Origin: Paraburkholderia ginsengiterrae
GTDB lineage: Bacteria > Pseudomonadota > Gammaproteobacteria > Burkholderiales > Burkholderiaceae
Direction of reading: 5' to 3'
Assembly (NCBI RefSeq): GCF_001645125.1
Contig: NZ_LXKA01000349.1
Location: 186,001-250,000, forward strand
DNA: 64,000 nucleotides
The notes beneath the pieces are model-generated. The model was not told where the DNA came from. It did not search any database and saw only the letters and a program-made list of their open reading frames with translations. The position numbers and the translations under genes were made by a program. Shown in pieces: positions 18,937 through 28,979 of the stretch. Positions within the stretch are counted from its first letter, which is position 1. Every line of letters starts with the position of its first letter.

Positions 18937-20322
18937 TCAGAACGCGTTGCGTCCGACAAATCCCTTGAAGATCGTGATGAACACAATTTTCATGTCGAAC
19001 CAGAACGACCAGTTGTGGATGTAAAAGAGGTCGAACTTGACGCGCGCTTCCATCTTCTCCACCTTCGTGGTGGCACCGCGATAGCCGTTGACCTGGGCCC
19101 AGCCGGTAATGCCCGGCTTGATCCGGTAGCGGTCCATATAGCCGTACACCTGATCCTTGTAGAGATCGTCGTGTTCGACCGCATGCGGACGGGGACCTAC
19201 CACCGACATCTGACCCAGCAGCACGTTGAGGAACTGCGGCAGCTCGTCAAGGCTGGTGCGGCGCATGAAGCCGCCCAGCTTCGTCACGCGTGTGTCGTTG
19301 CGGGTGGCCTGCGTGACCTGGCCGTGCGCTTCGTGGTGCACGGTCATGGAGCGGAATTTGTAGATCGCGAATGGCCGGCCGTCCACGCCCTTGCGGGTCT
19401 GGCGAAAGAACACCGGACCGGGCGAGCCGAGCTTGATGCCGATCGCCAGCACGACGAAGACCGGCGCGAGCGCCAGCAGCGCGGCCGCCGCGAACAGGCG
19501 GTCGAAGATCAGCTTGGGCCACATCTGCGGCGGCGAGCAGGGCGTCGCGCTCAGATTGAGCGTCGGTAAACCGACGACATCGACCAGCGCGTGATTGAAC
19601 AGCGAGAGGCTGCGCACATCGGGAATGAAACGCAGATTCACGAAGTCATGCCGGAACATGCGCGTGAACCGGTAGATCGTATGTTCTTCTGAAAGCGGCA
19701 ACGCGAGCCAGACTTCGTTCACCCGTTCCTGACGCACCTTGGCGGCGAAGGCGTCGAGATTGGTCAGGACCGGCAGACGGTTAAGCCGCGCGCCGAATGT
19801 GCCGGCGGCTTCAATGGTGGTGTCGAATACGCAGACCGGCTTGAAGCCGGCTTGCGGCGCATGCTCGAGGTGGGCGAGCAGCGAGCGCGAAAAGCCCGGT
19901 GCGCCGACGATCGCGACGGTGCGGCTATTCATCCCGCGGCGGCGCACGCTGCGCAGCGCCACATGCACGAAGCACTTGGTGACGATGATCAGCGTGCCGG
20001 AGATCAGCGTCGAATAACCGAGCCACAGGCGCGACACCGCATCCATGCGATGCAGCGTGAACGCCAGCACGAGCGCGGTGGCGACCACGACGGTCCACGC
20101 GGCGGCCACTCGCGCCAGCATGGCAGGCAAGGGTTTGCCGCGCCAGGTGTCATACACGCCGAAGCCGGGAAACAGCAGCAATACGAGCACGCAGTTGAAC
20201 GCGATCAGAAGGCGTTCCGTATCCGACAGCGACATCGGCGTCGAAAACCGCATCCAGTGAGCGAGCAGGCCACCCGCAATCACGAAGAGTGCATCAAGAC
20301 ATCGCGCAGTATTCCTGAACAT
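18937..20322 (-). CDS. Undecaprenyl-phosphate glucose phosphotransferase, WcaJ type
   Basis: It starts an exopolysaccharide repeat unit by moving glucose-1-phosphate from UDP-glucose onto undecaprenyl phosphate at the inner membrane. The 461 residues have four N-terminal membrane segments (about 8-110), a CoA-binding-like Rossmann region (VAIVGAPGFSRSLL), a fifth membrane segment (about 270-295) and the polyprenyl-phosphate hexose-1-P transferase domain. That domain shows FRSMTVHHEAHGQ, RTSLDELPQFLNVL, MSVVGPRPHA and KPGITGWAQVNGYRG. Length and order match PssY/WcaJ/BceB-type enzymes. It lies 36 bases downstream of a Crp-like regulator gene, suggesting co-expression. Confidence 0.92.
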   Translation of the reverse strand: MFRNTARCLDALFVIAGGLLAHWMRFSTPMSLSDTERLLIAFNCVLVLLLFPGFGVYDTWRGKPLPAMLARVAAAWTVVVATALVLAFTLHRMDAVSRLWLGYSTLISGTLIIVTKCFVHVALRSVRRRGMNSRTVAIVGAPGFSRSLLAHLEHAPQAGFKPVCVFDTTIEAAGTFGARLNRLPVLTNLDAFAAKVRQERVNEVWLALPLSEEHTIYRFTRMFRHDFVNLRFIPDVRSLSLFNHALVDVVGLPTLNLSATPCSPPQMWPKLIFDRLFAAAALLALAPVFVVLAIGIKLGSPGPVFFRQTRKGVDGRPFAIYKFRSMTVHHEAHGQVTQATRNDTRVTKLGGFMRRTSLDELPQFLNVLLGQMSVVGPRPHAVEHDDLYKDQVYGYMDRYRIKPGITGWAQVNGYRGATTKVEKMEARVKFDLFYIHNWSFWFDMKIVFITIFKGFVGRNAF

Positions 20323-20358
20323 AAGTGACTTTATCCGGTAGTCGGCCGAGCCCGTGTT

Positions 20359-21093
20359 TTACTCGACGGTTTCCGCCTGGCGCAGACGCGGCAGAAGGCG
20401 GTCGAATTCGCGCTTGACGAGGCCATAGCATTCGCAGGCACGTGCTTCCAGACCCTTGCGATCGAGCACCTTGATGTGGCCGCGGCTATGATGGATCAGA
20501 CCTTCGTCGTGCAGCTTGCCGGCGGCTTCGGTAATGCCCTCGCGGCGCACCCCGAGCATGTCGGCGATCAGTTGCTGGGTCACGGTCAGATCGTTCGAGG
20601 CGACACGATCCACTTCGATCAGCAGCCAACGGCACAGCTGCTTGCTCAGCGCATGGTGGCGGTTGCAGGCCGCGGTTTGCGCGACTTGCGTCAGCAGGGC
20701 GTGCATGTACAGCAGCATCAGGCGGCGCAGGAAATCGGAGCGGGCGAACTGTTGCTTGAGTGCCTGTGCGCTCATCCGGTAAGCGAAGCCGGCGCACTGC
20801 ACCTGCACGCGATTCGGCATGGTTTCGCCGCCGGTGAGCACCGGCACGCCGGTCATGCCTTCGCGACCGACCGCGGCGATTTCGACGGAGCTGCCGTCTT
20901 CCATCGTCGAGAGCATCGAGATGATCGCGGTGGTCGGGAAGTAGACATGGTGAATGCGCTGGCCGGAGTCGCACAGCAACTGCTCGGTGCGCAGATGAAC
21001 CAGTTCGAGATGGGGAGCCAGTGCCTGCCATTCGTGGGACGGCAATGCGCCGAGCAAATGGTTACCGTGCAGATCGGATTGAAGCGTCAACAT
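20359..21093 (-). CDS. Crp/Fnr-family transcriptional regulator
   Basis: This 244-residue regulator has an N-terminal cyclic-nucleotide-type beta-roll (about 15-130) and a C-terminal winged HTH, with LTVTQQLIADMLGVRREGITE as the recognition region (about 170-190). No cysteine cluster for an Fe-S centre is present, so it is not a classical Fnr. The start at 21093 is preceded by GAGG; the longer frame from 21156 adds a Lys/Gln-rich stretch without a ribosome binding site. Its place just before the WcaJ-type gene suggests that it controls polysaccharide initiation, which is an inference from context. Confidence 0.87.
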   Translation of the reverse strand: MLTLQSDLHGNHLLGALPSHEWQALAPHLELVHLRTEQLLCDSGQRIHHVYFPTTAIISMLSTMEDGSSVEIAAVGREGMTGVPVLTGGETMPNRVQVQCAGFAYRMSAQALKQQFARSDFLRRLMLLYMHALLTQVAQTAACNRHHALSKQLCRWLLIEVDRVASNDLTVTQQLIADMLGVRREGITEAAGKLHDEGLIHHSRGHIKVLDRKGLEARACECYGLVKREFDRLLPRLRQAETVE

Positions 21094-21726
21094 GATCGGT
21101 CCTCGCATGAAAGCCGCGCTTTGCGAAACTTTCTGTTTTTGATCCGATGCCTGCATCCCTTGGTGAACGTAGTGCTGCGTGGCGAGCAGCGAAGGATGAA
21201 CAGGACCGGCCCCGTAATGGCCTGATGCGCCGCCGCCGGTCTTGTCGATCTCGTTTGCGGTGACGCGGTGTTGCCCTCACCACATAGCGAGGAGCGTGCC
21301 AACGGTAGGGAAAACGAGCAACGAAGGGGCACAAGGCGGCAGACGGTACCGCCGCGCGAAGCCGGATGTGGCTTTTTGTTTCAATTCTGTACAACACCCG
21401 CTTAACCGGCGGGAGCGTCGCTGCGTCGTCATATTCGGCTCAAAGCCTTGGTGGGATTGGCCTAGCGGTTGGCGGACGGAGTATGGGGACAAGTCCCCAG
21501 GCGCTCAACCTGCCGCTGCATGCACGTTTTAACGCGCGGTCCGGGATGTGCCGGAAATGATTCAGATGTGTTCAATGCACTTGGTACGGTGCCGTGCGGA
21601 TCGCCTTCCAGGTGACGCAAAAGTCTGAGAAAACCCAACACCGATTCCCCAGACCAGACAGGTGGAAGCCCGCAAAACGAGGATTGGCGCGGCTTACGAA
21701 GGGCGTGCTTAGATCAGTGACGACAG
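21094..21726. other. Intergenic region between crp-like gene and the GH2 gene
   Basis: About 630 bases without a supported gene. Several short frames exist on both strands, but none has a ribosome binding site with a recognisable or compositionally typical product. The region must hold the promoter of the crp-wcaJ unit (minus) and the 3' end of the minus operon ending at 21727. No strong hairpin with a T-run was seen. Confidence 0.35.
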
Positions 21727-24396
21727 TTAACCGTAGAACGTGGCGGATAACGCATTGGTCGCGCGCACTTCGCCGGCGGGTGCCGCGCTTGTTGCATCTG
21801 CTTTAAACACCGCATTAGATGCGCACGCAACGAATCTTTCCGGCGGCGTGCGCGCAATGAGCGGCACGAGGGGTACGATAAGCTGGCGGCCCGGCGGAAG
21901 ATGAAAGCCGTCGTGCGCGGCACGATAGTTTGTGTCGACGATATGAACGGAACGCGCAAAGCGCTGTGCAACGATAACGAGCTGCCAGCCGTCGCCGTCG
22001 CGTTCGACCGCGACCGTCAGGCCGAGGTCGTGACGCTCGCCCGCACTGCGCTCCGGAAAATGAAACGCTTCCGAAACGATCCGGCCACTGGCCGCGTCGC
22101 GCAGTGTCGCGATCGTCACGTCATGCGCGCGCGGGCCGAAGCGGTAGGCGTGGGTGAAATCGAAGAACTGGCCAAGGCATTCGGCGGCGCTCAGCCGCTG
22201 CGCGCTGCGCGGCGGCAGTTCGAGTTCGCGGATTGCGGAGACCACCTTGACGTTGCCGTCTCGCAGGCAGATCAGTTCCAGCTGTGCATTGAAGGGCTGC
22301 GCTCGTTCGTTGAGCAGATGAATATCGAGGCCGTTGAGGCCCTCGTCGGTCATGAGCACCTGGACGGGTTGCAGTGTTCTCGCGAGGCCGTGCAGGGCGC
22401 TCTTAGGCCGTCCTGTGGCATCGATCAAGCCCCAGCCGGCGCCGGGACGCAGGTCCTGCAGTTGCCAGACCAGCGCGCCGCCGCAGGTCGAGCCGGCGCG
22501 GCGCCATTCGGCGAACGTCTCGCTCATCACTTCGGCGGCCACCGCGCGAGACAGATCCAGATACCGTTGCGGATCTTCATAGCGCAGGCGCGCGGGCTCG
22601 ACGTCTGATAAGGCCTGCAGATAGTGGTCGCGCACGTCGTCGAAATCCCAGCCGACGCCGGGGTCGCGCGGTACGGCGGCCTTCCAGCGCGGATCATGCG
22701 GATAAATCGTGCCGAGCGCATCCTGCAGCGTGGCGTCGTCGGGCACGTTGGCGAACGCGAGGCATTCGGCCGCGAAGCGCACCTGCGCGCGGCGCACGTC
22801 GTCGAGCGGCCGCTGATAGGCGCCGACGCCGTAATAATGCGTGATGCCCTCATTAGTCGAAAACGGCCATATTCCACCTGAAGGCGAATTGCTGACGTAC
22901 GGCACGTCCGGGCGCTCGCGCGCGACGATGGCGGGCAGCCGCTCGGTAAACAGTGGTTGCACGCGCATCGAAACCGGCAGGCCGAACATGGCCGCCTGCT
23001 GGTCCACCTCGCTGCCGCCGCACAGCACCGCGAGCGAAGCAAAGTGCCGGGTGCGCGTTAGAAACTGGGTGGCCTCGCGCTCGATCGACGCGTTGAATGC
23101 GGCATCGGTCGGGTAGTCGAAATTCGCCAGCGCGAAATCTTGCCAGACGAGCATGCCGTATTCATCGGCGAGCGCGTAGAAGGTGTCGGACTCATACACC
23201 ATCGTGCCGCCCACGCGCAGCATGTTCATGCCTGCATCGCGGGCCAGCGGGAAGGTATCGCGCAATTGCGCTTCGCTGCCTGTGAGCGTGACGAGGTCCG
23301 CGCTGGTCCAGCAGGCGCCGCGGCAGAACACCGGCTGTCCATTGACGCGCAACGCGAAGCCCGCGCCGTCCTCGCCGTAATCCGTTTCGATGCTGCGAAA
23401 GCCGATCGGACCCAGGTCGTGCGATGTGACGTGTCCGTCATCAAGCTGCAACGTCAATGGATATAAAGTGGGCTCGCCATGCGTGTGCGGCCACCAGCGT
23501 TCGGCAAGCGGCACGCGTACCGTGCCCACCAATGTATGGGCATCGCTCCATTGCATAGACGAAACAGCAGCCCCGCATTTGAGCGAGACGCGGCAAGCGC
23601 CGGCCTCGTGCGAATGAACAAAACGTAGCGTCAGCGAAACAACGCCGTCGTCGCCGTCGAGGCGGCTCGATATATCGACGGTGTCGATGGCGTGGGGCGC
23701 GTCGCTGAGCAGTTCGATCGGCCGCCAGGGTCCCACCGCCTGCACCGGCGGACACCAGCCCGGCATGTGGCCGAGCAGGGTGGTGCGCACGTTGCGCAAG
23801 GTCGGCGGTGTGACGAGCCGCGGCCGCCAGCGCGCGCGCGAACGTTTGGCCGCAAGCGCCGGTGTGAGCGAGCGAAAGCACAGCGCGAGCGTCGCGTTGC
23901 CGCGCAGGTCGATGTCGAGGTCGTGAGCCACGAACATCGAATCGGAATCGAGCAGTTTGATGCCGTCGAACCATACTTCGGCAATGGTGGCGAGACCGTG
24001 CAGGCGCAAGCGACGTTTGGCGGCGCTGCTGTCGCCGAGCGCGAGGCGATACCAGTGATCGTCGAAGGCGAGCGGCGGGGGATTGGCGATATCGAATAGA
24101 CCCGCGGCACGGCGCGCGCCGGCGACCGTGCCGGGCACTTGCGCGGCGAGCCAGCCGTGCGTGGGCCAGTCGGCAGGCGATTCGCACGCGCCCGCCGGCG
24201 TGCTCACGCACTGCCAGCCCGTGTCCAGGCGCTGGGGCCAGAGCGTGCGGGAGGTTTGCGCAGGATCAGCGGCGGCGACAGCATCAGCACCGGCATCGGC
24301 ATCGGCGGGCGCGCTGCCGTTGGCTTCATCGAGCGCAGCCGTGGACAGGCCGCTCTCATCATCGGCATCAGGCGTCATGGTCGATCGGCCGTGCAT
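21727..24396 (-). CDS. Glycoside hydrolase family 2, beta-mannosidase-like
   Basis: This large cytoplasmic enzyme has about 889 residues and no signal peptide. An Ala/Asp-rich N-terminal linker precedes the jelly-roll sugar-binding domain (WYRLALG, AEVWFDGIKLL), immunoglobulin-like domains and the TIM barrel (GFALRVNGQPVFCRGACWTS, LRVGGTMVYE, MLVWQDFALANFDYP). The acid/base region reads LCGGSEVDQQ, so the Glu (about 463) is kept but the Asn usual in the GH2 'NE' pair is Ser. RFAAECLAFANVP is the likely nucleophile strand. Starts at 24414 (TTG), 24396 or 24378 are all possible; 24396 has GAGGA 11 bases upstream. It is the last gene of the aminoacyl-carrier operon, 67 bases after the DUF1839 gene. 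Confidence 0.82.
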   Translation of the reverse strand: MHGRSTMTPDADDESGLSTAALDEANGSAPADADAGADAVAAADPAQTSRTLWPQRLDTGWQCVSTPAGACESPADWPTHGWLAAQVPGTVAGARRAAGLFDIANPPPLAFDDHWYRLALGDSSAAKRRLRLHGLATIAEVWFDGIKLLDSDSMFVAHDLDIDLRGNATLALCFRSLTPALAAKRSRARWRPRLVTPPTLRNVRTTLLGHMPGWCPPVQAVGPWRPIELLSDAPHAIDTVDISSRLDGDDGVVSLTLRFVHSHEAGACRVSLKCGAAVSSMQWSDAHTLVGTVRVPLAERWWPHTHGEPTLYPLTLQLDDGHVTSHDLGPIGFRSIETDYGEDGAGFALRVNGQPVFCRGACWTSADLVTLTGSEAQLRDTFPLARDAGMNMLRVGGTMVYESDTFYALADEYGMLVWQDFALANFDYPTDAAFNASIEREATQFLTRTRHFASLAVLCGGSEVDQQAAMFGLPVSMRVQPLFTERLPAIVARERPDVPYVSNSPSGGIWPFSTNEGITHYYGVGAYQRPLDDVRRAQVRFAAECLAFANVPDDATLQDALGTIYPHDPRWKAAVPRDPGVGWDFDDVRDHYLQALSDVEPARLRYEDPQRYLDLSRAVAAEVMSETFAEWRRAGSTCGGALVWQLQDLRPGAGWGLIDATGRPKSALHGLARTLQPVQVLMTDEGLNGLDIHLLNERAQPFNAQLELICLRDGNVKVVSAIRELELPPRSAQRLSAAECLGQFFDFTHAYRFGPRAHDVTIATLRDAASGRIVSEAFHFPERSAGERHDLGLTVAVERDGDGWQLVIVAQRFARSVHIVDTNYRAAHDGFHLPPGRQLIVPLVPLIARTPPERFVACASNAVFKADATSAAPAGEVRATNALSATFYG

Positions 24397-24463
24397 CCAC
24401 GGCGAGTTCCTCAACAGTCGGACAAAACGCGCGGCAACTGTTCGCGCGCTCGCGATGGGCGCG

Positions 24464-25525
24464 TTACAGCGCCAGCGCGGCTAGCGGCGGCAGGGTCTTT
24501 TCGTAAGCGCTTTCGAGCACGTCGAAGCAGTCCTCGCACAGATCGCGGCGCCCGCGGGTGATGGCCCGCACGAGCCGGAACTGCATTACCATGGACTCCG
24601 AAGCGATGCTCTGCGCGGCGTCCGGAATGGCCGGCGGCATGTCGAAACCTTGCGCGCCAAGCCACTGCAAGTACTTCGAGAGAAACTCGAAATTCGCGCC
24701 GAGCTGCCGCATCAGGTTGAACGAGTACGGGTGGAAGAACTTCTCGCCGCGTTCGAGCAGCGTTTCGAGGTGCTCGGGAAACGCGGCTCGCCAGTGCGAA
24801 ATCGGATTGCTGAGCGGCCGCCGGCTCAAATGCGCGCACAGGAGTTCCGCCGAGGCTTCCACGAGCGCGGTGCCTTCGAGCGCGGGCCGCGCCTGCTTGG
24901 CGAATTCCACGTAGGGGAACAGCAGATCGGGCTGGTCCGCGAATTGCGGCAGCTTGCGGAACACGCCGTCGTAGTCTTCGCCGTCGAGCAGGTGATAGCC
25001 GGTGTTGTGGAAATAGCCGAGGCGGCGCGCGGGCGGGTCGATGAAGTCGATGCCCACCGTGGTCTTCGGATGCTCGCGCCGGTACGACGTGGCGCGCGTG
25101 TTCGGCAGGTAATAGCCGTCCACTTCCACCAGCACGGTATGGCCGCGCGTGGTCTGGGCGAGCACGCGGGCTTCGAGCGAATCGTAGATCGCCAGTTCCT
25201 GCACCTGCGTGCCGTAGAGCCGGTCGAGGTCCTCGAGCGGAAACTTGAAGAACGTGAACTGGTCGCCTTCGAAATCCTGCGTGACGGTAAAACCGAACGC
25301 CGCGCGCGGGTCGAGTCCGAAGCCGTGCAGCAACTCGATCCACAGATCCACGTAGCAGTTGGTCTCCTGCCACACGCGATCGCCCTGATGCAGCGCATGC
25401 GACGCGTGCTCGCGCAGGCGCACGGCGGGCATGGCGGTGCTGCCGGAAGCGGGCGGATCGACGCGCCGGTTCAACGGAAAAACGGCGGGCGTGCCATGCG
25501 GCAGAGGTCTCGGCGATGGATTCAT
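24464..25525 (-). CDS. DUF1839 family protein
   Basis: This 353-residue soluble protein is of unknown function. Recognisable blocks are RVWQETNCYVDLWIELLHG, EGDQFTFFKFPLEDL, VLVEVDGYYLPNT and VGIDFIDPPARRLGYFHN. The family is known from Burkholderia, Bradyrhizobium and relatives beside amino acid:[carrier protein] ligase genes. The invariant Cys near residue 56 (ETNCYVD) and the fixed neighbourhood suggest an acyl or aminoacyl transfer role on the carrier-bound intermediate, but this is a guess. Its ATG overlaps the ligase stop codon (ATGA) and follows GGGGAG; the frame extending to 25795 is a shadow of the ligase gene. Confidence 0.82.
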   Translation of the reverse strand: MNPSPRPLPHGTPAVFPLNRRVDPPASGSTAMPAVRLREHASHALHQGDRVWQETNCYVDLWIELLHGFGLDPRAAFGFTVTQDFEGDQFTFFKFPLEDLDRLYGTQVQELAIYDSLEARVLAQTTRGHTVLVEVDGYYLPNTRATSYRREHPKTTVGIDFIDPPARRLGYFHNTGYHLLDGEDYDGVFRKLPQFADQPDLLFPYVEFAKQARPALEGTALVEASAELLCAHLSRRPLSNPISHWRAAFPEHLETLLERGEKFFHPYSFNLMRQLGANFEFLSKYLQWLGAQGFDMPPAIPDAAQSIASESMVMQFRLVRAITRGRRDLCEDCFDVLESAYEKTLPPLAALAL

Positions 25526-26583
25526 GCGTGCTCCCCGGCGCCTTGCTGCGCCGCATCGGGTGCCGTCGGCAGAGCCACGAGGCCGTCGGCGACGCGCGTC
25601 CCGGTGTCGCCCCAGAGCAGTTCGCGCACGTCGTCTGGCCAGGCGTTCACGTCGAGCCCGTGATGACGGAACAGCGCGAGCGTGATGCGTTCCATGCCAA
25701 AACCGACACAACCCGTATGCGCCACGCTGCCGTCGTCGCACGTGATCTTCCAGATCGCGCCGAAGTGTTCCATGTGATAGTTGAACGACAGGCAAGCCGT
25801 CTTGCCGCGCGGATCGGCCAGCGGAATCAGCAGTTCGAACTTGAGCGCGAGCGCTCGCTGGCTATCGGCGACGATCTTGCCGCCGCGGCCAAAGAACGGG
25901 TCGTTCGCCAGATCCACTTCGAGCGGCAGTTGCAGCAGCTCGACGAGCAGCGAGCCGCGCTCGATCCACATCTGCCGGAACGCCATGACCTGCGCGGCGT
26001 TGCCGAGCCGCACGTACTCGCGCTGGCGGAACATCTGCATGCGGCCGGGGTCGAGCGACGGTTCGTGGCGGAAGCAATAGGACAGCACGTCGATGGTGCG
26101 GCCGTCGGCCGGCAGCGGGCCGCGCCGCGCCATCACCGGATAGATCGGATAGCAGGCGGCCGGCGTGAGCACCACGCGAGTCGGCTTTTGCTGCGCCATC
26201 CAGTCGTCGGCGCGGTCGTCCTCACGCTCGATCATGGCGTCGTCGAGCGCGCGCAGCAGACGCCGGTGATCCATGTCGTTACCGCAGAACGAGTGGATCG
26301 TGCCGGCCAGATTCGGAAAGCTTTTCAGATATTCGCTGTCTTCGAAGTCGGTGCGGCGCATGGCGGGTGGAAAGCGCAGCACTTCGGGCTGCTGGTCCGC
26401 GCCCAGATGCGTGATCGCCACGTTCAGGCGGTCCACCACGTCTTCGAAGATCTGGCTGCGGCCGTACAGGCCGTCTTCGCCGGTATCGATCAGCAGGCCC
26501 GCGGCCAGCAGTTCATCGCGAAAGCCCGGCGAGCCGGTTTCCTGAGCGGCGGCAAGCGCGGCGGTAGCAGGCATCGTAGTCAC
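25522..26583 (-). CDS. Amino acid:[carrier protein] ligase (seryl-tRNA-synthetase-like)
   Basis: This class II aminoacyl-tRNA-synthetase homologue lacks the tRNA-binding arm. In the characterised family (Bll0957 of Bradyrhizobium and relatives) it activates glycine or alanine with ATP and loads it onto the phosphopantetheine of a small carrier protein. The 353 residues show motif 2 (FRHEPSLDPGRMQMFRQRE, about 171-189) and motif 3 (GFGMER, 295-300). Cys144, Glu189 and Cys292 have the spacing I recall for the zinc ligands of atypical SerRS enzymes. The GTG start abuts the upstream TGA, with GGGAGAG before it. The cognate carrier is encoded two genes upstream. Confidence 0.92.
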   Translation of the reverse strand: MTTMPATAALAAAQETGSPGFRDELLAAGLLIDTGEDGLYGRSQIFEDVVDRLNVAITHLGADQQPEVLRFPPAMRRTDFEDSEYLKSFPNLAGTIHSFCGNDMDHRRLLRALDDAMIEREDDRADDWMAQQKPTRVVLTPAACYPIYPVMARRGPLPADGRTIDVLSYCFRHEPSLDPGRMQMFRQREYVRLGNAAQVMAFRQMWIERGSLLVELLQLPLEVDLANDPFFGRGGKIVADSQRALALKFELLIPLADPRGKTACLSFNYHMEHFGAIWKITCDDGSVAHTGCVGFGMERITLALFRHHGLDVNAWPDDVRELLWGDTGTRVADGLVALPTAPDAAQQGAGEHA

Positions 26584-27855
26584 TCAGGCTCTCCCGGGGG
26601 CGGCAGGACGCTGCGCGAGCAGCAGGCTCGCGGTGTTCTGCGCGATGCGATCGTTGTTGATCATCAGCGGCGCGGAGTACAGGTCTCGCAGATGGCGTCC
26701 GACGCTGTACGGCGTGCCGTTCTTGTAGCCCGCCATGCCGCAGATCATCAGCACTTCCTGCACGACCTGCAGCGCGGTGGTGGAGATACTGGTCTTCAAC
26801 GTGTTCATGTCGGAGGCGAAGCCGAGCATGGCCGAGAGCGGCGCATCGGCCTGCGAGCCGCCGTGGCGAACCTGGTGCGCGGCGCGGGCCGCCTCGAGTG
26901 CGACCGCGAGGCGCGCCTGCATCATCTGCAGGAGGCCGACCGCTTCGGCGAGGCGCAGGCCGGCCGGCGGAATCGAGCCGGGCGTCGAGCGCGCCTGGGC
27001 GCGAAAGAAAGTCTTGGCGCGATTCACCGCGTCGGCGGCCACGCCCGTCCAGACCGAAGCCCAAAGCGTGTGCGAAACCGGCAACATGGTTTGATCGGCG
27101 ATCTCGGCAAACGGCGCGGGCAGGATCTGTTCGGCCTGACCCGTGGCGACGAGCCGGAAGCCTTCGCTGCAGGTGCCGCGCATGCCCATCGCGTCCCAGC
27201 TGCCGCGTTTTTCGAGCTGTGTTTCCGCGTTCAGCGCGACGATCAGCACCTGGTCGGCAGCCGGGGATTCGGCGGTGCGGCGTGCGGTCACGAGAATGCC
27301 GTCGGCGTGCGCGCCGTACGAAATTGTGGGTGCGAGCTTTTCAATGCGAAAGCGCGCGCCGTCGAGTTCGACCGAGCAGGCGCTCGTGCGCAGATTGCCG
27401 CCAATGTTTTCTTCGGAAGTCGCCGAAGCCAGCAGCCATCGATGCTCGACCAGCTGCGCGAGCAACTGCCGATGCCACGCCGAGTCGCTGCCATGGGCCT
27501 CGATGCACGCCACCTGGATCTGGTGCATCGCATACACCATGGCGGTGGAGGCGCAGCCTTGCGCGAGCGTTTCGCAGATCGCGCCGATGTCCGCAAGCGA
27601 CAGTCCCGCGCCGCCGAACGCGGCCGGCACCATGGCCGACAGCAAGCGTTCGCGTTTGAGCGCGTCGAACGCTTCCGTTGGAAAACGCGCATCGCGGTCC
27701 ACTGCGTCGGCGAACTGCGCGGCCACCGCCGCGCAGCGTTGCGCCGCCGCACGCCAGCCGGGTTCGGTTTCGACCGCGCTCAGCACGACAGCGACATCGT
27801 CGTGTGCCGGCGCCTGGGCGAGTGGGGCGGCTGCATCCGGTAGCGGGGAGTTCAT
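26584..27855 (-). CDS. Acyl-CoA-dehydrogenase-like flavoprotein
   Basis: The protein has 423 residues with the acyl-CoA dehydrogenase layout: an N-terminal helical domain (VPAAFGGAGLSLADIGAICE), a middle beta domain (SATSEENIGGN, KLAPTISYGAHADGILVTAR) and a C-terminal helical bundle (VVQEVLMICGMAGYKNGTPYSVGRHLRDLYSAPLM). Such flavoproteins can also oxidise carrier-protein thioesters, as prolyl-carrier dehydrogenases do. Encoded between a carrier protein and its aminoacyl ligase, it most likely acts on the carrier-bound amino acid, not on fatty acyl-CoA (inference). It overlaps the carrier gene by 4 bases. Confidence 0.85.
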   Translation of the reverse strand: MNSPLPDAAAPLAQAPAHDDVAVVLSAVETEPGWRAAAQRCAAVAAQFADAVDRDARFPTEAFDALKRERLLSAMVPAAFGGAGLSLADIGAICETLAQGCASTAMVYAMHQIQVACIEAHGSDSAWHRQLLAQLVEHRWLLASATSEENIGGNLRTSACSVELDGARFRIEKLAPTISYGAHADGILVTARRTAESPAADQVLIVALNAETQLEKRGSWDAMGMRGTCSEGFRLVATGQAEQILPAPFAEIADQTMLPVSHTLWASVWTGVAADAVNRAKTFFRAQARSTPGSIPPAGLRLAEAVGLLQMMQARLAVALEAARAAHQVRHGGSQADAPLSAMLGFASDMNTLKTSISTTALQVVQEVLMICGMAGYKNGTPYSVGRHLRDLYSAPLMINNDRIAQNTASLLLAQRPAAPGRA

Positions 27856-28103
27856 GCTGCCGCCTGTGCCTGCTGCAATTCGGTGACCGCGGCGGCCATC
27901 GAATTGATGCTGGAGAAGAGCCGGCGCGTCAGCAGGCGGTCCGGAATTTCAATGTTGAATTCGTCTTCGATGGCCAGCATCAGGTGCACGGTCGCTAGCG
28001 AGGACAGACCCGCGGCGTACAAATCGGCGTCGTCCGCGAGGGAGTCCGGATGGACATCCAGGCGGGCCGATTCGGAAAGGATGCGTCGCAGTGCGGTTTT
28101 CAT
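27852..28103 (-). CDS. Phosphopantetheine carrier protein
   Basis: This acidic protein of 83 residues has the four-helix carrier pattern: DLYAAGLSSLATVHLMLAIEDEF holds the attachment site. The usual DSL triplet reads SSL; Ser35 would carry the phosphopantetheine arm. It is the first gene of the five-gene minus operon and the probable acceptor of the amino acid loaded by the ligase two genes downstream. No dedicated phosphopantetheinyl transferase is nearby. A GGAC-type weak ribosome binding site precedes the ATG at 28103. Confidence 0.88.
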   Translation of the reverse strand: MKTALRRILSESARLDVHPDSLADDADLYAAGLSSLATVHLMLAIEDEFNIEIPDRLLTRRLFSSINSMAAAVTELQQAQAAA

Positions 28104-28445
28104 GGCGGGGAGTCCTCAATGGTCCAGCAGTTTCTTGAATGTTGTCGACGTCAAGCGAACGCACGTCATGGTCTTGCGTGGCTCGTGCCGCGGATCGGGC
28201 TGGCGGGGTCCATCTGCCGGACGCGGCGCTTTCACGTGGATTACGGGATCTTTCCTGCCGTGCGATGTCCCGATGTCCGGTATTTAAGAATCAGCAAAGC
28301 CCAGCGTCAGTGCGATGCCGCACGGAAACACGCGTTTCGCGGACGTACCGTGTAGCCATGAAAACGGACCGGTGCGCGGAGCCGGGCCGTCGAGGGCGGC
28401 GCTCGCGCCCGGACTCGTCGAACTCATTGACCGCTGAGGAAAGTG
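28104..28445. other. Divergent intergenic region, carrier-protein operon and GNAT gene
   Basis: About 340 bases separate two divergent transcription units and should contain both promoters. GAGGAAAG just before 28446 is the ribosome binding site of the acetyltransferase gene. No clear -35/-10 pair or operator palindrome was seen. Confidence 0.4.
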
Positions 28446-28979
28446 ATGAACTGGAAAACGCTGGAATTCGATCAGCTTTCGGCACGCGAGTTGTATCTGC
28501 TCTTGCGGGCGCGCAGCGCGGTGTTTGTGGTCGAGCAGTCGCACGTTTGCCTCGACGCCGACGGCCGTGACGAAGGCTCATTGCATGTGTTCGCAGTGGA
28601 GGACATCACCCGGCCGATGCCGATCCTCGCCTACGCACGTGTGCAGCCCGGCGATGCGGAAGATCCGGAAATCACCATCGACAAGGTGCTCACCAGCCCG
28701 CTGCGGCGCGGTGACGGCACCGCCGAAATGCTGCTCGAGCGCGTGCTGCAGGCCATCGCCGAGCGCTGGCCGGGACATGCCGCGCGGGTGAGCGCGCCGC
28801 TCGGCTTGCGCGGCTTCTACGAGCAATTTGGCTTTCGCAAGACGGAAGGTCCGTACCTCGAACATGGCGTGCCGTTCATCGGCCTCACGCGCCAGGTGCG
28901 CGGCGCCCAGCCGCTCTTCGGCACGCGCCGCCGTGAGCGCGACGGCGCGGCGCTCATCAATACCTTCGAGATGCTGTGA
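28446..28979 (+). CDS. GNAT-family N-acyltransferase, ElaA-like
   Basis: This 177-residue GNAT protein is of the ElaA subgroup, with MNWKTLEFDQLSARELYLLLRARSAVFVVEQ-type opening blocks (residues 1-31), a core around DKVLTSPLRRGDGTAEMLLERVL, where the acetyl-CoA pyrophosphate loop is RRGDGTA, and the terminal strand GFYEQFGFRKTEGPYLEHGVPFI-type region (about 121-143). ElaA-like proteins are predicted acetyltransferases with no firmly known substrate. ATG 28446 is preferred over GTG 28443 because of its spacing from GAGG. It is transcribed divergently from the carrier-protein operon. Confidence 0.85.
   Translation: MNWKTLEFDQLSARELYLLLRARSAVFVVEQSHVCLDADGRDEGSLHVFAVEDITRPMPILAYARVQPGDAEDPEITIDKVLTSPLRRGDGTAEMLLERVLQAIAERWPGHAARVSAPLGLRGFYEQFGFRKTEGPYLEHGVPFIGLTRQVRGAQPLFGTRRRERDGAALINTFEML

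What the first reader, a model, noticed from the sequence alone, without database searches (positions are those of the whole stretch)
21727..28103. Five-gene aminoacyl-carrier operon ending in a GH2 enzyme
A carrier protein, an acyl-CoA-dehydrogenase-like flavoprotein, a tRNA-independent amino acid ligase, a DUF1839 protein and a beta-mannosidase-like hydrolase are tightly linked on the minus strand (overlaps of 4, 0 and 4 bases, then 67 bases). Amino acid:[carrier protein] ligases are known biochemically (Gly or Ala onto a carrier), but to my knowledge their pathway products are not. The order suggests activation, oxidation of the carrier-bound amino acid, then transfer by DUF1839. A glycosidase in the set hints that a sugar conjugate is made or trimmed.
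Basis: partly seen in the sequence, partly recalled or inferred. Interest (0 to 1): 0.75.

Follow-up and report, generated by a model that had tools for sequence, protein, structure and literature searches.

The report
Aminoacyl-carrier operon tied to exopolysaccharide
A conserved set of bacterial genes appears to load a small amino acid onto a carrier protein, modify it and attach it to a sugar, probably of the cell's outer polysaccharide; the product is still unknown, but the genes are strictly inherited together and have a sixth partner.

Summary
The five genes are real, at the stated coordinates and spacings. They form a strictly conserved unit: all 16 DUF1839-bearing genomes in a 398-genome phylum sample carry ACP–ACAD–ligase–DUF1839–GH2 in this order. 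DUF1839 and this GH2 clade occur in exactly the same genomes (16 of 398; 14 of 130 in a second draw, 4 of them shared), so GH2 belongs. A sixth component was missed: a fused double alpha/beta-hydrolase with a Cys in GxCxG, present in every operon genome of both draws and in one genome without the operon (G322). The 'dehydrogenase' lacks Glu at both known base positions (oxygenase more likely than –2 Da). The 'mannosidase' has the SE motif and opened pocket described for CAZy GH2_14, whose two assayed members are slow beta-galactosidases. DUF1839 is a papain-like Cys enzyme; in 11 of 12 two-copy genomes the operon copy lost the Cys while a second copy kept it. Best reading: decoration of a polysaccharide sugar with an oxidised aminoacyl group. 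The polysaccharide link is contextual and partial (5 of 11 distant loci show such genes beside the operon). A 2010 note predicted much of this; I found no test. No biochemistry or structure model was possible.

The parts
27852..28103 (-). dedicated acyl/aminoacyl carrier protein, 83 aa; phosphopantetheine Ser35 (GLSSL)
   Evidence: PF00550, NF005480; Ser35 in 88 of 88 aligned rows
26584..27855 (-). acyl-CoA-dehydrogenase-fold flavoprotein without the canonical Glu base; probable oxygenase or oxidase of the carrier-bound aminoacyl group
   Evidence: PDB relatives include nitrososynthases and DszC as well as dehydrogenases; Ile399 and His262 in 85 of 85 rows
25522..26583 (-). amino acid:[carrier protein] ligase, class II SerRS-like core, GTG start, 'type 1' clade
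   Evidence: NF005479 528.5 bits; Bll0957 structures 4h2w E 1.9e-85 and 3mey E 1.2e-83; C144/E189/C292 in 85 of 85 rows; tree
24464..25525 (-). DUF1839, papain-like Cys enzyme (C57, T155, H173), predicted aminoacyl transferase
   Evidence: PF08893 441 bits; alignments; PMC10318531 passages
21727..24396 (-). GH2-family glycosidase, probably cytoplasmic, SE acid/base motif (S464-E465), nucleophile E546, resembling CAZy GH2_14
   Evidence: same genomes as DUF1839; subfamily features from PMC12243196
20359..21156 (-). CRP/FNR-type regulator; a homologue lies in 64 of 80 named loci
   Evidence: association only
18937..20322 (-). undecaprenyl-phosphate glucose phosphotransferase (TIGR03023), exopolysaccharide priming enzyme; a homologue lies in 57 of 80 named loci
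   Evidence: 506 bits against cut-off 411
28443..28979 (+). GNAT acetyltransferase flanking the operon in 45 of 80 named loci; a syntenic boundary gene, probably not part of the pathway

Best explanation
The operon is the core of a tRNA-independent aminoacylation pathway that decorates a sugar of a cell-surface polysaccharide. Step 1 (strongly inferred): the ligase adenylates a small amino acid (glycine or alanine by analogy, recalled) and loads it on Ser35-phosphopantetheine of the dedicated ACP. Step 2 (inferred): the flavoprotein oxidises the carrier-bound aminoacyl group, more likely by oxygenation than by alpha,beta-dehydrogenation. Step 3 (inferred): DUF1839, a papain-fold Cys enzyme analogous to BtrH of butirosin synthesis, takes the acyl group on Cys57 and passes it to an amino or hydroxyl group of a sugar or lipid-linked precursor. 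Step 4 (inferred, weakest): the GH2 enzyme, with a pocket opened around C2, cleaves a substituted beta-galactoside-like intermediate in the cytoplasm (editing or trimming). A fused double alpha/beta-hydrolase (Cys in GxCxG; in this genome on another contig, G000:C89:33025-34806, in a polysaccharide locus) is a sixth component, perhaps a second acyl transferase or thioesterase linked to export of the modified unit.
For: Order ACP-ACAD-LIG-DUF1839-GH2 in all 16 DUF1839 genomes of 398 and in 68 of 80 named loci, one of which repeats a genome of the sample. DUF1839 and the GH2 clade occur in the identical 16 of 398 genomes and the identical 14 of 130 (4 shared with the first draw). The double hydrolase is in the same 16 plus one of 398 and the same 14 of 130, although on another contig of the assembly in G000, G107, G191, G255, G406 and G420. 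The 12 over-cut-off ligase genomes without DUF1839 lack this GH2 and the hydrolase, and their ligases fall outside the type-1 group (96/100). Catalytic residues conserved: ligase, ACP, GH2 E465 and E546 84/84, DUF1839 Cys57 95/108 with 11 of the 13 losses in genomes that hold a second, Cys-bearing copy. Polysaccharide context: priming transferase in 57 of 80 named loci; Wzx, Wzz/Wzc, Wza, ManC or GT genes near several operons and near 7 of 8 hydrolase loci examined apart; hydrolase fused behind a flippase domain in L052 and L054. GH2 SE motif and opened pocket as in GH2_14.
Against: No product, substrate or activity is shown. The acceptor is inferred from neighbourhood only, and the neighbourhood is mixed: of 11 loci outside the window's family, polysaccharide-type genes were recognised beside the operon in 5 (L052, L053, L054, L059, L061); L058 showed a GH5 only, and none was recognised among the few neighbours scanned in L055, L056, L062, L063 and L064. 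L200 shows none. In this genome the hydrolase and its polysaccharide genes sit on another contig. G322 keeps the hydrolase without the operon. No promoter site was found and terminators did not exceed chance, so one transcript is inferred from spacing. The oxygenase reading of the ACAD rests on missing residues: the best PDB match is a short-chain acyl-CoA dehydrogenase (7p98), which itself has Thr at the aligned position. No structure model could be made. Co-occurrence p-values ignore shared ancestry, and the profiles A3 and A5 were built from operon-bearing genomes.
Confidence: 0.5

Rival explanations
1. The operon makes a small diffusible aminoacyl glycoside (antibiotic, signal or siderophore-like): same steps 1 to 3, but onto a free sugar or aminoglycoside, with the GH2 and hydrolase processing the conjugate before export.
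For: The closest mechanistic model, BtrH of butirosin, acts on a small aminoglycoside (PMC10318531 passage). In five of 11 distant loci no polysaccharide gene was recognised among the neighbours scanned. Transporter genes occur near L055, L062 and L064.
Against: Wzx, Wzc/Wzz, Wza, ManC, GT and priming-transferase genes near many copies in four families, and fusion of the hydrolase behind a flippase domain in L052 and L054. No single exporter recurred among the neighbours I annotated.
Confidence: 0.25
2. One reading: the flavoprotein is a true dehydrogenase (-2 Da) giving an imino- or dehydro-aminoacyl carrier, as RedW/AnaB do with prolyl carriers; the GH2 trims a sugar conjugate.
For: Pfam acyl-CoA dehydrogenase N-domain; best PDB hits include dehydrogenases, and the prolyl-ACP dehydrogenase 4irn is among the matches.
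Against: The position of the Glu in the usual YEGT motif is Ile399 in 85 of 85 rows; the isovaleryl-CoA-dehydrogenase-type position is Ser261 in 83 of 85 rows beside invariant His262 (base positions recalled). Nitrososynthases and DszC are also among the matches.
Confidence: 0.15
3. The unit feeds a non-ribosomal peptide or protein modification: the aminoacyl-ACP donates to a peptide, lipid or protein, and the glycosidase is incidental.
For: The 2010 PNAS work proposed a link to non-ribosomal peptide synthesis (as cited in PMC2922099). EF-P lysylation-type genes lie near the operon in L052, L054, L056 and L058.
Against: No NRPS gene among the neighbours annotated (a part of all neighbours). 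The GH2 clade was not found without DUF1839 in either draw, so it is not incidental.
Confidence: 0.06

Closest known systems
Amino acid:[carrier protein] ligase Bll0957 of Bradyrhizobium with its carrier protein (PDB 3mey, 4h2s and others listed)
   Same: Homologous ligase (47% identity over 298 residues), same Zn-ligand residues, an acyl-CoA-dehydrogenase-like gene next to it by number (bll0958 'acd' follows bll0957 in a table of PMC10888616)
   Different: Bll0957 belongs to the other set (94-96% identical to ligases of L065-L070) whose loci have no DUF1839 and no GH2
   Same: Apparently the same gene set; that note predicts amide ligation of an amino acid to a cell-surface sugar and probable monooxygenation of the aminoacyl group
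BtrH, papain-like ACP:aminoglycoside acyltransferase of butirosin synthesis
   Same: Papain-like Cys enzyme working with an ACP, proposed acyl transfer from carrier to sugar
   Different: Different Pfam family; DUF1839 has a C(T/S)H triad (PMC10318531); no activity known
CAZy GH2_14 (BmGH2_14, SdGH2_14)
   Same: SE motif, small residue in place of the loop-2 His/Trp, no signal peptide in the tested members
   Different: Sequence membership not tested; both genome draws show this clade only with DUF1839, while the words 'acyl carrier' and 'exopolysaccharide' do not occur in that paper
Exosortase-A-associated hydrolases 1 and 2 (TIGR03100, TIGR03101)
   Same: The sixth component is a fusion resembling hydrolase 2 followed by hydrolase 1
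   Different: Both matches are below the curated cut-offs; exosortase was not looked for

Membership tests
Amino acid:[carrier protein] ligase | SerRS-like class II core matching NF005479 above cut-off | tested here: met
   528.5 bits against 357
Amino acid:[carrier protein] ligase | No N-terminal tRNA-binding domain; aligns along its length with Bll0957 | tested here: met
   353 aa; residues 26-323 align with 43-330 of 346
Amino acid:[carrier protein] ligase | Zn ligands Cys, Glu, Cys (positions recalled) | tested here: met
   C144, E189, C292 in 85 of 85 rows
Amino acid:[carrier protein] ligase | Loads Gly, Ala or another amino acid on the carrier | not testable with these tools
   needs biochemistry
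Acyl-CoA dehydrogenase (dehydrogenating) | ACAD fold or domain | tested here: met
   PF02771 E 9.7e-14; PF00441 just below its cut-off
Acyl-CoA dehydrogenase (dehydrogenating) | Catalytic Glu at the MCAD-type or IVD-type position (recalled) | tested here: not met
   Ile399 85/85; Ser261 83/85, Cys 1, Ala 1, positions from the alignments
ACAD-fold oxygenase (group D) | Oxygenation with reduced flavin from a reductase | not testable with these tools
   only indirect: relatives DnmZ, 3m9v, 3mxl, DszC
Papain-like ACP acyltransferase (BtrH-like) | Papain-like fold | not tested
   stated for DUF1839 in PMC10318531; structure prediction unavailable here
Papain-like ACP acyltransferase (BtrH-like) | Conserved Cys, Thr/Ser and His | tested here: met
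   Cys57 95 of 108; residue 155 Thr 96, Ser 8, Ala 4; His173 108 of 108; 11 of 13 Cys losses are operon copies in genomes with a second Cys-bearing copy
GH2 family, retaining glycosidase | Acid/base Glu and nucleophile Glu | tested here: met
   E465 and E546 84/84, aligned with beta-mannosidase chains
GH2_13 beta-mannosidase | NE motif and loop-2 Trp | tested here: not met
   S464 in 83 of 84; Trp position is G53, S26, P3, N1, A1
CAZy GH2_14 | SE motif | tested here: met
   83 of 84
CAZy GH2_14 | His/Trp replaced by Gly | tested here: inconclusive
   Gly in 53 of 84, otherwise Ser, Pro, Asn or Ala
CAZy GH2_14 | Membership in the CAZy sequence cluster | not testable with these tools
   CAZy models not available
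Exosortase-A-associated hydrolases | TIGR03100/TIGR03101 above cut-off | tested here: not met
   112.6 against 168.45 and 70.9 against 202.75 for L064

The most novel reading that the evidence does not exclude
It uses a papain-fold Cys transferase (in Cupriavidus and relatives possibly an active/inactive DUF1839 pair), a Cys-type double alpha/beta-hydrolase, and a dedicated glycosidase whose C2-opened pocket recognises the substituted sugar. This would give GH2_14-like enzymes a natural role and the type-1 aa:CP ligases their product class.
Probability: 0.33. Interest if true: 0.8.

Novelty: new variant of a known kind. Interest (0 to 1): 0.6.

Why it matters
Amino acid:carrier protein ligases have had structures for over a decade without a known product (a 2022 review, PMC9437257, still calls the role unknown). 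The strict co-inheritance defines the whole enzyme set, including a sixth gene that is not always linked, and points to surface polysaccharides as the first place to look. This turns an open biochemical question into a gene-deletion and NMR experiment in environmental strains. It also separates two ligase lineages: the structurally characterised one is not the one with the sugar genes.

Tried and rejected
Rejected: 'GH2 is an incidental neighbour' (identical phyletic set). 'The hydrolase is a general esterase': at E 1e-50 it occurs in 17 of 398 and 14 of 130 genomes, all but one with the operon. 'The DUF1839 hit to PDB 5hu4 shows homology': E 0.17 only, not used. 'A lone promoter for GH2': no sigma-70-like site found in 20300–28500; such scans miss other promoter types. 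Nine eroded loci (L095, L105, L108, L110, L111, L125, L126, L146, L150) lack the ligase and most other operon genes but keep an open DUF1839; this is partly ascertainment, since loci were fetched by DUF1839. dN/dS there is 0.04–0.47 against a median of 0.099 (range 0.053–0.203) for 57 intact pairs; left unexplained. Literature: searches were judged by their listings; passages or sections were read in seven papers (PMC10318531, PMC9437257, PMC2922099, PMC12243196, PMC6566704, PMC10888616, PMC11941606). They showed no experiment on DUF1839 or on the pathway product; Bll0957 and Atu2573 appear only as list entries in two expression studies. The Mocibob 2010 paper is not held and the 2013 one was not looked up, so their content is recalled or second-hand.

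Mended on checking: an earlier count gave 33 loci with the hydrolase in the fetched flank; the count is 32 of 97. The polysaccharide context of the distant loci was rechecked and is thinner than first written (5 of 11), so confidence was lowered from 0.55 to 0.5, the small-molecule rival raised from 0.22 to 0.25, the novel case lowered from 0.35 to 0.33 and interest from 0.62 to 0.6. The claim of a flippase fusion was tested and holds for L052 and L054; the 1119-residue protein of L204 shows no flippase match in its first half.
Full report
1. Observation. The five genes exist as described, on the minus strand, with overlaps of 4, 0 and 4 bases and then a 67-base gap. Family searches give PF00550/NF005480 (ACP), Acyl-CoA_dh_N (flavoprotein), NF005479 (ligase, 528.5 bits against a cut-off of 357), PF08893 (DUF1839) and GH2 domains. 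The genome (8.5 Mb, one DUF1839 copy) resembles Paraburkholderia: its ligase is 95% identical to that of P. xenovorans LB400 over 289 columns.

2. Conservation. In an even draw of 398 genomes of the phylum, DUF1839 occurs in 16. All 16 also hold the ligase, and in all 16 the order is ACP–ACAD–LIG–DUF1839–GH2. Counting the window and L049–L064 as well, it is 84 of 97. One contig is counted twice (L057 = L120, identical DUF1839). The 13 without the full set are: two extra DUF1839 copies (L049, L132), one locus at a contig edge (L130), one operon without DUF1839 (L159) and nine eroded loci. In the 11 loci outside the window's family (L052–L056, L058, L059, L061–L064) the longest GH2 frame starts between 4 bases inside and 16 bases after the DUF1839 stop.

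3. Phyletic test. A profile of the GH2 clade (A3) finds 16 genomes above 1200 bits, exactly the 16 with DUF1839. The only other hit at E 1e-60 (G373, 222 bits) is an ordinary beta-mannosidase with NE and Trp. A second draw of 130 genomes (order of G143) gives DUF1839 in 14 and the GH2 in the same 14; four of these (G143, G028, G043, G262) were in the first draw. Naive chance is 7e-29 and 5e-19, but shared ancestry makes these figures too small. The 12 genomes of the first draw with an over-cut-off ligase but no DUF1839 also lack this GH2.

4. A sixth component. Clustering of neighbouring genes showed a roughly 600-residue protein with two alpha/beta-hydrolase domains, resembling exosortase-A-associated hydrolases 2 and 1 fused, below both cut-offs. 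It lies in the fetched flank in 32 of 97 loci and directly follows GH2 with an 11-base overlap in L063 and L064. As a profile (A5, nine rows) it occurs in 17 of 398 genomes, namely the 16 operon genomes plus G322, and in the same 14 of 130. In the window's own genome it is on another contig (C89), beside two GT2 genes, a Wzy_C match below its cut-off, a WecA-like transferase (PF00953) and a Polysacc_synt_2 enzyme. Eight hydrolase loci were examined apart from the operon: seven show Wzx, Wzz, Wzc, Wza, ManC or GT genes, and L200 shows none. In L052 and L054 the hydrolase is the second half of a protein whose first half is a flippase (PF13440 in L052; 46–47% identical to the separate flippase of L053). 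The second hydrolase domain has an invariant Cys in GxCxG and an invariant His; the first lacks a nucleophile in the nine rows.

5. How firm is the polysaccharide link? A homologue of the window's priming glycosyltransferase lies in 57 of 80 named loci and a homologue of the CRP-like gene in 64, but this synteny may be inherited from one ancestor. Outside the family, polysaccharide-type genes were recognised beside the operon in 5 of 11 loci (L052 and L054: GT4 and flippase; L053: flippase, GT2, Wzz; L059: Polysacc_synt and a sugar-transfer ATP-grasp; L061: Wzz and Acyl_transf_3). L058 has a GH5 only. Among the few neighbours scanned in L055, L056, L062, L063 and L064 none was recognised. Not every neighbour was annotated.

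6. Active sites. Ligase: C144, E189 and C292 are conserved in 85 of 85 rows; ACP Ser35 in 88 of 88. Flavoprotein: counted from the RD pair, the place of the YEGT Glu is Ile399 (85/85), and the isovaleryl-CoA-dehydrogenase-type place is Ser261 (83/85) beside invariant His262 (the base positions are recalled). PDB relatives include dehydrogenases, nitrososynthases, DszC and prolyl-ACP dehydrogenase. I read this as oxygenase or oxidase chemistry more likely than dehydrogenation, but the test is indirect. DUF1839: a published survey places it among papain-like enzymes with a C(T/S)H triad (PMC10318531, passages). In 108 copies Cys57 is present in 95 and His173 in all. Eleven of the 13 losses (R or Q) are the operon copies of genomes that carry a second, Cys-bearing DUF1839; 12 such two-copy genomes were seen, and the operon copy of L154 keeps Cys. 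L159 has no operon copy and only a separate Cys-bearing one. The other two losses are L108 (eroded) and L132, an extra copy in Caballeronia sp. dw_19, whose operon copy (L123) keeps Cys. Every two-copy genome seen thus keeps at least one Cys-bearing copy, which argues that the Cys matters.

7. The glycosidase. Both catalytic Glu residues are invariant (84/84). The usual NE motif is SE in 83 of 84, and the Trp of beta-mannosidases is Gly, Ser, Pro, Asn or Ala. A 2025 study of GH2 subfamilies describes the SE motif and a Gly in place of the His/Trp for GH2_14. Its two assayed members, one of them from a Burkholderia, were slow beta-galactosidases inactive on mannobiose and mannotriose, and the authors suggest that the larger pocket may accept substituted substrates (PMC12243196, section 23 part 1 and passages). 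The related GH2_16 uses SD to accept a C2 amino group (same section; Ser468–Asp469 of CsxA also in PMC6566704, passage). No signal-peptide-like stretch is seen in the window protein, so it is probably cytoplasmic. Whether this clade is inside GH2_14 could not be tested.

8. Two ligase lineages. A maximum-likelihood tree of 39 ligases puts all 22 rows with DUF1839/GH2 on one side of a branch (96/100). The structurally characterised Bll0957 groups with the others, 94–96% identical to ligases of L065–L070, whose loci carry ACAD and ligase but no DUF1839 or GH2. Findings on Bll0957 therefore transfer to the chemistry of loading, not automatically to the pathway.

9. What it is. Best reading (0.5): carrier-bound aminoacylation followed by oxidation and transfer to a sugar of a surface polysaccharide, with GH2 and the double hydrolase acting on intermediates. 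Loading is strongly inferred from homology. Oxidation, transfer, acceptor and the glycosidase's role are inferred. Main rival: a small secreted aminoacyl glycoside (0.25).

10. Prior knowledge. A note added in proof in 2010 (PMC2922099, section 17 read whole) already reported a SerRS paralogue linked with ACP, a redox enzyme, a conserved uncharacterised ORF, a glycosidase and liposaccharide genes. It predicted amide ligation of an amino acid to a cell-surface sugar and, for the redox enzyme, probable monooxygenation of the aminoacyl group. A 2022 review still calls the role unknown (PMC9437257, passages). Searches showed me no experimental test in the held library; most subscription papers are missing from it. 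New here, as far as I can see: the phyletic identity of the set, the sixth component, the missing Glu base, the SE-type pocket, the split of DUF1839 into Cys-less and Cys-bearing copies, and the separation of the two ligase lineages.

Noticed in passing
L148, L149, L151, L152, L154-L158, L160, L051, L049/L050: Two DUF1839 copies per genome; the operon copy has R or Q in place of the catalytic Cys in 11 of 12 genomes while the separate copy keeps it: a possible pseudoenzyme-enzyme pair.
   Followed up: partly
L095, L105, L108, L110, L111, L125, L126, L146, L150: Eroded operons lacking the ligase and (except L150) an intact ACAD, with GH2 reduced to fragments or not found, but an open DUF1839; dN/dS above the intact range in L108, L110 and L111 only.
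   Followed up: partly
L074, L075, L076: DUF1839-free ligase loci share two gene families, a Cys/Met-metabolism PLP enzyme (scanned in L076) and an HTS (homoserine O-succinyltransferase) family protein (scanned in L075): perhaps another pathway from aminoacyl carriers.
   Followed up: no
L072, L073: DUF1839-free ligase loci with Abhydrolase_3, AMP-binding and SDR genes downstream of the ligase.
   Followed up: no
L052, L054, L056, L058: A pair of genes like EpmA and EpmB (EF-P lysylation; scanned in L058 only, the others by clustering) lies upstream of the operon; probably chance neighbours within one family.
   Followed up: no
L201 (G322): Same genus as the window genome; keeps the double hydrolase in a Wzc-bearing locus but has no DUF1839, ligase or GH2 match.
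   Followed up: no
L052:14387-17698, L054:1956-5267: Flippase (PF13440) and double hydrolase fused in one 1103-residue protein; a 1119-residue protein in L204 has the hydrolase but no flippase match in its first half.
   Followed up: yes
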